Positions 17,488 to 20,487 of a stretch of 64,000 bases of DNA are shown in pieces (position 1 is the stretch's first letter; every line of letters starts with the position of its first letter). The stretch comes from Thermoleophilaceae bacterium (GTDB taxonomy: Bacteria; Actinomycetota; Thermoleophilia; Solirubrobacterales; Thermoleophilaceae): positions 62,001 through 126,000 of the forward strand of contig JAUJNF010000004.1 in the NCBI GenBank assembly GCA_030446485.1, given 5' to 3'. A program made the translations under genes and the position numbers. The notes below the pieces were generated by a model. It was given only the letters and a program-made list of their open reading frames with translations, was not told where the DNA came from and searched no databases.

Positions 17488-18735
17488 CTAGCTCGCGGCG
17501 TCCCAGGACCGTAGGCTGGGCAGCGGGTCGAACGGCCTCCCGCCGTCGTACCAGCCGGGCGCGCTCCACATCTCGAAGTGCAGGTGGCATCCCTGTGCGT
17601 TGCCCGACTCTCCCACCGTGCCGATCGCCTGGCCCGTGGCCACCCGCTGCCCGGGCTTCAGGGGCGAGCGGGAGGTGAGGTGCATGTAGGCGTAGTCGAC
17701 GCCGGTGCCGGCGCCGTCGATCACGATGTAGTTGCCGGCGGCGGAGTGGTACTGGTTGAACTTCACGACGCCCCCGCGGGCCGCCACCAGCGGCGTGCCA
17801 CAGCGCGCGAACACGTCCTGGCCCTGGTGCGAGCGGCCCGACCGTCCGGAGCCGAACCGGGACCCGGAGCTGCCGTAGTCGTGCTTTCCGCGGATCGGGA
17901 AGATGTGGCCGAAGAGGACGAAGGCATCGGGCGACTTGCGAGTGGCCGCCGAGTTGCTCACCTTCACGCCGTTCTTACCGACGGCGGTGATCCGGAAGGC
18001 GTAGCGCCCCTCGGGAGCCATGCGGCGTCGCGCGCCGCCGCCCCAGCTGACGCTCTGGATCGTATCCGGGCTGACGCGGGGCCGCGACCATGACTTGACG
18101 ACCCTGCGCTCCGACAGGCGGACCAGATCGATCCGCACCGAAACCGGCTCGGGATGCCTGACGCGGTAGGTGAACACGAGGCCGCGGCGCTGTCCGTAGA
18201 AGAGCTTGTCGCCGCTCGTCGAGGTCTCGATCCGCGGCGCGGCGGACTGCGGCTCGGGGGCCCTCTCGGCCGGGGGCGGCTCGGCGGGGGTGGACGGAGG
18301 CGGGGATGGCCCCGGCCGCGGCTTGGGCTCGCTTGCTTCGCGCACGGTGAGCGTCCCGGTCGGCCGCGAGTGAGCGCCCGGGCCGACCCACGCGGCGAGC
18401 GGGCCCGTGGCGGCCTCGGGGGGCACCGTCAGCCGGATGGTGGTGTCGCTCGCCGGCTCGACTCCGACGGAGGTGTCGTCGCCGCTGCCGGAGCGGCCGT
18501 GAAAGACGACCGTGGTCACGTCGGCGAGGTTGCGCCCGCGGATCTTCAGCTTGCTGCCGCTCACCACGCCGCCTGCGGACGGGCACCCGTTGGTGCACTG
18601 GAAGCTCTCGATCACCGGCACCGGCGCGGCCTCGGCGCCGGAGGCGCCCGCCAGGCCGGCCGCGGCGACCACGCCCGTGACGCCAAGCGCCCTGCGACGA
18701 AGGGAGAACCCAGTCCTCGAAAGCAACGTATGCAC
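17488..18735 (-). CDS. Secreted M23 metallopeptidase with IPT/TIG-like domain
   Basis: Predicted peptidoglycan endopeptidase, 415 residues. It has a signal peptide ending near GAEAAPVP, an IPT/TIG-like beta-sandwich with a Cys pair (residues about 45-120, QCTNGCPSAGGVVSGSKLKI), a Pro-rich spacer, a second beta-rich segment, and a C-terminal LytM/M23 domain. Zn ligands are in SHQGQDVFARCG and GCHLHFEMW, and YMHLTS is also conserved. The GTG start lies directly against a c-di-AMP riboswitch, with GAGAGG just before it. Cell-wall remodelling under c-di-AMP control is therefore very likely. Confidence 0.92.
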   Translation of the reverse strand: MHTLLSRTGFSLRRRALGVTGVVAAAGLAGASGAEAAPVPVIESFQCTNGCPSAGGVVSGSKLKIRGRNLADVTTVVFHGRSGSGDDTSVGVEPASDTTIRLTVPPEAATGPLAAWVGPGAHSRPTGTLTVREASEPKPRPGPSPPPSTPAEPPPAERAPEPQSAAPRIETSTSGDKLFYGQRRGLVFTYRVRHPEPVSVRIDLVRLSERRVVKSWSRPRVSPDTIQSVSWGGGARRRMAPEGRYAFRITAVGKNGVKVSNSAATRKSPDAFVLFGHIFPIRGKHDYGSSGSRFGSGRSGRSHQGQDVFARCGTPLVAARGGVVKFNQYHSAAGNYIVIDGAGTGVDYAYMHLTSRSPLKPGQRVATGQAIGTVGESGNAQGCHLHFEMWSAPGWYDGGRPFDPLPSLRSWDAAS

Positions 18736-18736
18736 G

Positions 18737-18900
18737 GCCTCTCGCTCGCGCCTACGGGGTTAGCTGACGGGCTCGCGCTCTGCGCTACGACAGCGAGTGC
18801 GTGACGCACTCGGTCCGATTCGCCCCCCGGAGGTCTCCCTCCGACTGGTTCCCCCGTTCCCCGGCGGCATGGCCCCCGGGGATTCGGCTCCTTGTACGGC
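18737..18900 (-). promoter_or_regulatory. Cyclic di-AMP riboswitch (ydaO/yuaA class)
   Basis: Read on the minus strand, the leader contains the near-invariant 3' block GTCAGCTAACCCCGTAGGCG (18768-18749), the purine-rich GGGGAACGGGGGAACC (18862-18847) and GGGCGAATC (18825-18817), in the order and spacing of the ydaO motif. Family knowledge: it binds c-di-AMP and usually lowers expression of cell-wall hydrolases or osmolyte and K+ transporters. Its 3' stem runs into the GAGAGG ribosome-binding site and the GTG start, so translational control is plausible. Confidence 0.93.
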
Positions 18901-18920
18901 TGACGGCGGGGCACTATATA
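18892..18920 (+). promoter_or_regulatory. Candidate sigma70-type promoter for rplM-rpsI
   Basis: TTGTAC (18892-18897), a 17-base spacer, then TATATA (18915-18920), 122 bases before the rplM start. TATATA is self-complementary and also sits just upstream of the opposite-strand riboswitch, so it may act as a shared -10 core. The minus-strand -35 is not convincing. Confidence 0.5.
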
Positions 18921-19042
18921 CACGCTCGCCGTCGCCATGGGAGGCGGGGGCCGCCCGGCCGCTTCCTGCCCCATCTGCCACTATGTCGGATCGGTTGCAC
19001 GCGGCCGCGCCGATCTCGGCGGCATCGTGCGCCACCCTCGGC

Positions 19043-19480
19043 ATGAAGACCTACGTAGCCACCCCAGCCACCCGCGAGCGCAACTGGCTCGTCGTCGACG
19101 CGACCGGGCAGACGCTCGGACGGCTGGCCACGCAGATCGCCGACGCCCTGCGCGGCAAGCGCAAGCCCGAGTACACCCCCCACTGCGACGTCGGAGACTT
19201 CGTGATCGTGGTGAACGCCGAGCGCATCTCGGTCACCGGGAACAAGCGCAGCGAGAAGCTGTACCACCGGCACTCGGGCTATCCCGGCGGCCTGCGCACG
19301 CGCACGCTCGAGGAGATGCTCGCGCGCCGCCCCGAGGAGGTCATCCGCCTGGCCGTGAAGGGGATGCTGCCGCGCAACCGGCTGGCCCGCGCCCAGCTCA
19401 CCAAGCTGAAGGTCTACGCCGGCCCCGATCACCCGCACGTCGCCCAGAAGCCGCAGCCCATGGAGGTCGCCGCGCGATGA
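19043..19480 (+). CDS. rplM: 50S ribosomal protein L13
   Basis: 145 residues from ATG. Signature segments are [34 protein letters not shown] and [20 protein letters not shown], then the C-terminal [19 protein letters not shown]. It is the first gene of the conserved rplM-rpsI-glmM cluster and overlaps rpsI by ATGA. Confidence 0.97.
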
Positions 19481-20487
19481 TCGACGACGAGGAACGCCCC
19501 GACTCCGAGGACGCGGCCGGCGACACACCGCCTGCGGGGGGGGAGACGCCGCCCGAGGAGCTCGTCGAGGAGGTCGGCTCCATGGGCGCCGAGACGGTCC
19601 CCGACGCCGGGGAGGACGAGGCGCCGAGCACCGCGGCTGACGAAGGCGACGCCGCGGAGGCCTCCGCGGAGGAGCCGCCCGCCGGGGACGAGGAGGCACC
19701 GGGGACCGACGCCGGAGCGGCGGAGCCCGTCACGGCCGAGCCCGCCGCGGAGGACCCCGCTGCCGCCGACACCGACGTCGACGGCGCGGATGAACCAGCC
19801 GTGGCCGGGACCGACTCGGCCGAGCAGCCGGTTGCCGAGGAGACCTCAGCAGAACCGCCCCCGCCCGGCCGGCCTCCGCGACCGGCCTCCGAGGAGACCC
19901 AGGAGAGGACGGCCGACGTGGTCCCGGGTGCGGACCTCGAGCCCGACCTCGTCCTCGATGGAGAGACCACCGGCATCGCCGGCGACGCGTACGCCGACCC
20001 CTATGCGGAGCCCGAGGCCCAGGTGGACGCCGAGGCCGGGGTCCTCGACGAGGAGGAGGCGCCGGCACCCGTGACCGCCACGCCGCTCGACCTGGCCGCC
20101 GACGCGCGCTATCGGGCCACCGGCAAGCGCAAGACGGCGGTGGCCCGCGTCATCCTCAGGCCGGGACCCGGCAACTACACGATCAACGGCCGGCCGCTCG
20201 AGACCTTCTTCCCGCGGCCGACGCTCCAGCGCACCGCGCGCCTTCCGCTCGAGGCGGCCGGCTACGAGACGCGCATGGACGTGGTGGCCCGCATCCACGG
20301 CGGCGGTGTCTCCTCGCAGGCCGGCGCGCTTCGCCACGGGGTGGCGCGGGCCCTGGTCGAGGCCGATCCCAACCTGCGCAGCGAGCTCAAGCGCCGCGGC
20401 TTCCTCACCCGTGACGCCCGGGCCAAGGAACGCAAGAAGGCCGGCCTCAAGAAGGCCCGCAAGCGTCCGCAGTTCTCGAAGCGCTAG
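19477..20487 (+). CDS. rpsI: 30S ribosomal protein S9 with long acidic N-terminal extension
   Basis: The last 128 residues or so (from about 209) are ordinary S9: [51 protein letters not shown] and the C-terminal RPQFSKR that reaches the decoding site. Before that lies an extension of about 205 residues rich in Glu, Asp, Ala, Pro and Thr, with no Lys and only four Arg before the S9 core. The frame is uninterrupted and the ATG overlaps the rplM stop, which supports the long start; GTG 20070 would give an S9 of normal size. Actinobacterial S9 often has a short extension, but this is far longer. Total 336 residues against a usual 130-170. Confidence 0.9.

What the first reader, a model, noticed from the sequence alone, without database searches (positions are those of the whole stretch)
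18737..18900. c-di-AMP riboswitch abutting the start codon of an M23 peptidase
The conserved ydaO blocks are present on the minus strand, and the 3' terminal stem holds the putative ribosome-binding site and ends at the GTG. This placement suggests control of translation rather than termination and links c-di-AMP to cell-wall hydrolysis.
Basis: partly seen in the sequence, partly recalled or inferred. Interest (0 to 1): 0.55.

Follow-up and report, generated by a model that had tools for sequence, protein, structure and literature searches.

The report
c-di-AMP riboswitch without its usual pseudoknot
An RNA switch for the signal molecule c-di-AMP sits just in front of a cell-wall-cutting enzyme gene, as in many actinobacteria, but this copy lacks the loop that its relatives use to cover the ribosome landing site, so it probably shuts off protein making in another way or has lost part of its control.

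Summary
The riboswitch is real: RF00379 matches 18899-18734 (-) at 50.0 bits, gathering score 38. It precedes a secreted M23 peptidase, with no terminator in between. rplM/riboswitch/M23 synteny holds in the order: 25 of 30 M23 loci have divergent rplM, and 23 of those 25 keep the riboswitch. The terminal stem P1 is 3 bp; the ribosome-binding-site-like GAGAGG (18743-18738) lies outside it, in the tail. Twelve of 22 orthologues start 20-26 nt after P1, which favours TTG at 18726 over GTG at 18735. In most relatives a hairpin loop (CUCUUUC) pairs with this tail (GAAAGAG): the known ydaO pseudoknot, supported here by covariation. The window copy lacks the loop (GCGC-AGA-GCGC), although its core is intact. 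All copies in nine genomes: 41 of 62 can form the pseudoknot, 21 cannot; the latter keep core and start spacing. Translational c-di-AMP control and the cell-wall link are in print (PMC9960051, PMC10117811). Verdict: a genuine c-di-AMP riboswitch, probably a translational OFF switch, of a pseudoknot-less variety whose mechanism is open. Binding and switching are untested.

The parts
18734..18899 (-). c-di-AMP (ydaO/yuaA) riboswitch aptamer, RF00379
   Evidence: cmscan 50.0 bits, gathering 38, E 1.2e-8; same place 50 bits in the whole-genome search
18886..18888 (-). P1, 5' strand (GCC), pairs with 18752-18750
   Evidence: Rfam alignment; positions counted on the sequence
18750..18752 (-). P1, 3' strand (GGC); end of the closing stem
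   Evidence: Rfam alignment
18775..18785 (-). shortened hairpin GCGC-AGA-GCGC; in most relatives this loop is CUCUUUC-like and pairs with the tail
   Evidence: 7-position deletion against RF00379; alignment with relatives; loop AGA gives no helix with the tail
18738..18743 (-). Shine-Dalgarno-like GAGAGG in the tail, outside P1
   Evidence: sequence; about the same place as GAAAGAG of relatives
18724..18726 (-). TTG, start codon favoured by the spacing of orthologues (23 nt after P1, 11 nt after GAGAGG)
   Evidence: start offsets in orthologues
18733..18735 (-).
   Evidence: ORF list
17488..18735 (-). secreted M23 peptidase (415 aa from GTG, 412 from TTG; signal-peptide-like N-terminus by eye; HxxxD and HxH of M23 present, motif recalled)
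   Evidence: PF01551 81.7 bits, residues 302-398; nearest NCBIfam models are peptidoglycan endopeptidases, all far below their cut-offs
19043..19480 (+). rplM (L13), divergent neighbour, conserved next to the riboswitch-M23 unit
   Evidence: PF00572; 25 of 30 M23 loci have divergent L13

Best explanation
A c-di-AMP-binding RNA aptamer in the leader of a secreted M23 peptidase gene of a Solirubrobacterales-like actinobacterium (placement inferred from named organisms with very similar riboswitches). It most likely acts as an OFF switch on translation initiation: when DisA-made c-di-AMP is high, the aptamer with P1 closed sits 14-23 nt upstream of the start codon, inside or at the edge of the ribosome's landing zone, and keeps the 30S subunit off. 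Unlike most relatives it cannot also cover the Shine-Dalgarno region with its hairpin loop, because the loop is gone; so blocking would rest on closeness of the folded RNA (steric), and regulation may be weaker. Shown: the aptamer match, its core, the gene, the synteny, the absence of a terminator and of the loop. Inferred: ligand binding, direction, translation level, steric blocking.
For: RF00379 above threshold. Of 49 columns conserved at >=95% in pseudoknot-bearing relatives, the window departs at 2, both in the missing loop. No terminator-like site in 18600-19100; own-order sites: 0 of 100 with a terminator by a simple script, median P1-to-start 23 nt, 72 of 100 within 30 nt. Riboswitch kept between rplM and M23 in 23 of 25 syntenic loci. 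Copies without pseudoknot keep the same start distance (median 21 against 23 nt). A like arrangement is reported as an OFF switch, likely on translation, in C. glutamicum nlpC (PMC9960051, passages). A DAC match in 38 of 41 genomes of the relatives set, the own genome included; in the own genome it is weak, below the cut-off and cut by a contig end, behind a reading frame I take for radA.
Against: No experiment. GAGAGG is retained in the window but has no partner in the aptamer (best alternative p = 0.41). In S. coelicolor rpfA, c-di-AMP is reported to cause premature transcription termination although no canonical terminator is present (PMC10117811, PMC9960051, passages), so lack of a terminator does not prove translational control. 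The copy scores low (50 bits; the best of the seven in this genome 84.2). The start codon is uncertain.
Confidence: 0.6

Rival explanations
1. A riboswitch with a damaged output: the aptamer still binds c-di-AMP but, with the anti-Shine-Dalgarno loop lost, it no longer controls the M23 gene or does so only slightly.
For: The loop is missing and no other partner of the tail is found. The loss arose at least 4 times at this locus on a weakly supported tree, and two orthologues (L084, L092) have no riboswitch match at all.
Against: The core outside the loop is unchanged. Among the 17 pseudoknot-less copies of eight relatives, 13 have no departure in 42 core columns, much as copies with the pseudoknot (33 of 38). 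A useless aptamer should decay. The class is common (21 of 62).
Confidence: 0.22
2. Transcriptional control: c-di-AMP provokes termination or pausing within or just after the aptamer without a canonical terminator, as described for rpfA of Streptomyces.
For: Reported for S. coelicolor rpfA (PMC10117811 passages; PMC9960051 discussion passages).
Against: No terminator-like site, 0 of 100 own-order sites by script. In C. glutamicum the nlpC switch did not alter transcript level with c-di-AMP (PMC9960051). Start codons held close to P1 make most sense for translation.
Confidence: 0.15
3. The short loop is an assembly error of this incomplete genome and the true sequence has the pseudoknot.
For: The genome is 76% complete in 27 contigs; one genome only.
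Against: Short loops of the same form (GCGC-GAGA-GCGC, GCGC-ATA-GCGC, GCGC-ACA-GCGC, GCGC-GTT-GCGC) occur in several other genomes. Four of seven copies in the own genome lack the pseudoknot.
Confidence: 0.03

Closest known systems
ydaO/yuaA c-di-AMP riboswitch class (RF00379; crystallised form 4QLM/4QLN, sequence read in PMC5393176)
   Same: Complete match to the family, intact conserved core, P1, same order of helices.
   Different: The crystallised RNA has loop ...ACUCCUUCG... and tail ...CGAAGGAG..., and the text calls its pseudoknot stable (PMC5393176); that these two stretches form it is my reading. The window has GCGC-AGA-GCGC and no such pairing.
C. glutamicum nlpC riboswitch RSnlpC (PMC9960051)
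   Same: Actinobacterial, before a wall peptidase, no canonical terminator; OFF and likely translational there.
   Different: There CTCC of the riboswitch is proposed to pair with GGAG of the RBS; here the corresponding loop is absent. M23 instead of NlpC/P60.
S. coelicolor rpfA riboswitch (St-Onge; seen through PMC10117811 and PMC9960051)
   Same: c-di-AMP riboswitch before a wall hydrolase, no canonical terminator.
   Different: Reported to act by premature transcription termination.

Membership tests
RF00379 c-di-AMP riboswitch | covariance score above the curated threshold | tested here: met
   50.0 against 38 bits, full length
RF00379 c-di-AMP riboswitch | conserved core nucleotides | tested here: met
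   47 of 49 columns conserved at >=95% in relatives agree; the 2 departures lie in the lost loop
RF00379 c-di-AMP riboswitch | loop-tail pseudoknot of the crystallised form (peripheral; not in the Rfam consensus line) | tested here: not met
   loop AGA; no helix with the tail. 21 of 62 copies in nine genomes also lack it and most of them score above the family threshold, so I do not treat it as a defining feature
RF00379 c-di-AMP riboswitch | binds c-di-AMP | not testable with these tools
   no assay; a sub-threshold DAC match cut by a contig end in the own genome
translational (RBS-masking) c-di-AMP riboswitch, as proposed for RSnlpC | no intrinsic terminator, start codon close to the aptamer | tested here: met
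translational (RBS-masking) c-di-AMP riboswitch, as proposed for RSnlpC | aptamer element complementary to the RBS | tested here: not met
   loop missing, no alternative partner
translational (RBS-masking) c-di-AMP riboswitch, as proposed for RSnlpC | ligand lowers translation, not transcript level | not testable with these tools
   needs reporters

The most novel reading that the evidence does not exclude
In this actinobacterial order about a third of c-di-AMP riboswitches, the window's among them, form a pseudoknot-free kind in which loop and Shine-Dalgarno pairing were given up repeatedly while the aptamer and its distance to the start codon were kept: the ligand-bound aptamer itself, not RBS pairing, would keep the ribosome off.
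Probability: 0.35. Interest if true: 0.5.

Novelty: new variant of a known kind. Interest (0 to 1): 0.38.

Why it matters
The class, its wall-hydrolase targets and a translational example are known. What is new is a natural series at one conserved locus: orthologous riboswitches with and without the loop that masks the RBS, with intact cores. Comparing them in one reporter would show directly how far the pseudoknot is needed for translational c-di-AMP control, which the held literature leaves as a proposal (PMC9960051).

Tried and rejected
Free folding of the whole leader: the fold found is not the aptamer fold and is not clearly better than shuffles; not used. First pseudoknot counts (regex-based, rejected): they mixed in false sites and the hairpin finder was loose; one search showed that >=5 bp is a lenient test (letter-shuffled loops reach it in a mean of 50.3 of 100), so 'lacks the pseudoknot' is conservative. 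Second count (91 of 101 own-order sites with >=5 bp) used mostly the highest-scoring sites plus the M23 orthologues, so it overstates the pseudoknot; replaced by all copies of nine genomes. Enrichment of loss in the own genome (3 of 7 with pseudoknot against 38 of 55 elsewhere): not significant (Fisher p 0.21), dropped. First tree had wrong reading frames in some rows (L071, L077, L079 and L088 fell together apart); replaced, itself weakly resolved (6 of 22 inner branches starred). Pairing of the tail with the coding sequence: read but not used; GC-rich local folds differ from row to row. Alternative partner of the tail inside the aptamer: 2 of 21 at p<0.05, about what chance would give. Phage-borne c-di-AMP riboswitches: 47 viral contigs hold the 17-base motif, none matches the covariance model. 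Sigma-70-type promoter: none found. Structure papers (Ren & Patel; Gao & Serganov; Jones & Ferre-D'Amare) and Nelson 2013 are not held, so whether pseudoknot-less members are described there is unknown to me; no such description appeared in the listings, and one search found no paper with 'c-di-AMP riboswitch', M23 and peptidase together.

Full report
OBSERVATION. cmscan finds one RNA family in the 64-kb window: RF00379, c-di-AMP riboswitch, 18899-18734 on the minus strand, 50.0 bits against a gathering score of 38, E 1.2e-8, whole model. Downstream on the same strand lies an M23 peptidase (PF01551, 81.7 bits). rplM (L13) is divergent at 19043.

ANATOMY. By the Rfam alignment the closing stem P1 has three standard pairs, 18888-18886 with 18752-18750. 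GTG 18735 follows GAGAGG by 2 nt; TTG 18726 in the same frame follows it by 11 nt. In the 22 other orthologues with a riboswitch, the first in-frame ATG/GTG/TTG lies 20-26 nt after P1 in 12 (11, plus L072; the script missed L072's start). In the other 10 it lies elsewhere or none is seen nearby. The window's TTG is at +23, its GTG at +14. I favour the TTG but cannot exclude the GTG.

THE PSEUDOKNOT OF THE RELATIVES. Aligning 32 sites of the order shows, in most rows, a hairpin GCGC-nCUCUUUCn-GCGC and, in the tail after P1, GAAAGAG, the exact complement, placed where the Shine-Dalgarno sequence should be. On the model-based alignments the seven pairs have 78.9% of cells paired in 98 distinct own-order rows (shuffles 75.6 +- 0.6, 0 of 500 as high; slid by 1-3 columns 50.4-72.0%), and 28 cells changed on both sides against 11.8 in shuffles. 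In 102 rows from named genomes of many phyla the figures are 72.4% (65.1 +- 1.1; slid 51.2-64.5%) and 97 against 49.0. All 7 pairs show changes on both sides in both sets. The covariance model's structure does not hold this helix, so the alignments do not lean towards it by construction; the shuffles ignore relatedness, as the tool warns. The pairing is known: the crystallised ydaO RNA has loop ACUCCUUCG and tail CGAAGGAG, and the text calls its pseudoknot stable (PMC5393176, passages; the match of the two stretches is my reading); a CTCC/GGAG pseudoknot with the RBS is proposed for C. glutamicum nlpC (PMC9960051, passages); a review lists ydaO among riboswitches that hide the RBS by docking (PMC10907184, passage).

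THE WINDOW COPY LACKS IT. The loop here is AGA (GCGC-AGA-GCGC, 18785-18775), a 7-position deletion against Rfam. The best loop-tail helix is 1 bp. The core is intact: of 49 columns conserved at >=95% in relatives with the pseudoknot it departs at two, both in the lost loop. No other part of the aptamer replaces the loop (p 0.41; over all 21 pseudoknot-less copies of nine genomes 2 of 21 at p<0.05).

HOW COMMON. Sites picked by score mislead: 91 of 101 own-order sites had a helix of >=5 bp, but these were mostly the best-scoring ones. Taking every copy at E<=0.001 in eight relatives (55 copies), 38 have it and 17 do not; with the own genome's 7 (3 with, 4 without), 41 of 62 with and 21 without. 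41 of 62 against 61 of 70 (Bacillota plus other phyla) gives Fisher p 0.006, with the caveat that the samples were drawn differently. Pseudoknot-less copies have short loops (3-6 nt in 14 of 21), unchanged cores (13 of the 17 in eight relatives without any departure in 42 columns; 33 of 38 with pseudoknot) and the same distance to the start (median 21 against 23 nt, Mann-Whitney p 0.35). An SD-like motif in the tail is less frequent (11 of 21 against 37 of 41). Start distances rest on a mechanical choice of the longest ORF and are wrong in some rows (L006, L071 and L077 among them).

THE LOCUS. All 61 genomes searched hold M23 relatives; of the 30 loci taken, 25 have rplM divergent (3 of the other 5, L078, L080 and L083, are cut by contig ends; L085 and L086 show no L13 within the stretch), and 23 of the 25 carry a riboswitch between (not L084, L092). 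Of these 23, 5 lack the pseudoknot (window, L067, L070, L072, L073), one is weak (L093, 4 bp), 17 have it. On an M23+L13 tree the state changes at least 4 times, counting 22 rows and leaving out the weak one and the two without riboswitch; only 6 of 22 inner branches are well supported, so the number is provisional.

THE CELL. The own genome has seven copies. Their downstream genes by Pfam: M23 (window, L002, L007), transglycosylase (L003), CAP (L006), none for L001 (sub-threshold NlpC/P60-type NCBIfam hits) and L004. All 41 genomes of the relatives set carry 2-12 copies, against 22 of 119 in an even draw of the phylum (stricter filters). A DAC domain is found in 38 of 41, 37 of them over the cut-off. 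In the own genome it is a 22.8-bit match below the 27-bit cut-off, cut off by a contig end after an ORF I read as radA, the classical disA neighbour (gene names recalled; Pfam and NCBIfam scans of the 78-aa fragment found nothing).

MECHANISM. No terminator-like site in 18600-19100 and 0 of 100 own-order sites by script; 72 of 100 starts within 30 nt of P1 (Bacillota 27 of 38 within 30 nt, terminators in 7 of 38). So translation initiation is the likely step, and OFF the likely sense, by analogy with C. glutamicum (PMC9960051). For the window copy, RBS masking by the loop is excluded, which leaves closeness of the ligand-closed aptamer to the start (steric), or a weakened switch. Transcriptional action as reported for rpfA (PMC10117811) is a rival.

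NOVELTY. The family, the wall-hydrolase link and a likely translational example are in print. I found no account of pseudoknot-less members in the listings, but the key papers are not held. I file it as a member of RF00379 in a pseudoknot-less variety.

Noticed in passing
L073, L075, L076, L088, L091 (M23 orthologues), 18-24 nt after P1: These have no in-frame ATG/GTG/TTG at the conserved start position but a CTG there, which hints at CUG start codons.
   Followed up: partly
G017:C3:23533-23931 (L327, L345): Two c-di-AMP riboswitches point away from each other about 110 nt apart; the minus-strand one lacks the pseudoknot, the plus-strand one has it.
   Followed up: no
G016:C7:978-2072 (L307, L319): Two c-di-AMP riboswitches on the same strand less than 1 kb apart; the second lacks the pseudoknot, the first has it.
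   Followed up: no
G012:C14:38584-39286 (L270, L301): A c-di-AMP riboswitch is divergent from the DAC (c-di-AMP synthase) gene itself.
   Followed up: no
window 19477-20487 (+): rpsI (S9) carries about 208 residues of acidic, low-complexity sequence before the S9 domain (residues 209-336).
   Followed up: partly
for example L104, L133, L144, L145, L151, L160, L172, L189, L197, L201: Strong matches to the riboswitch model in contigs labelled Acidobacteria, Armatimonadetes, Chloroflexi, Cyanobacteria, Verrucomicrobia and Planctomycetota; contig labels were not checked.
   Followed up: no
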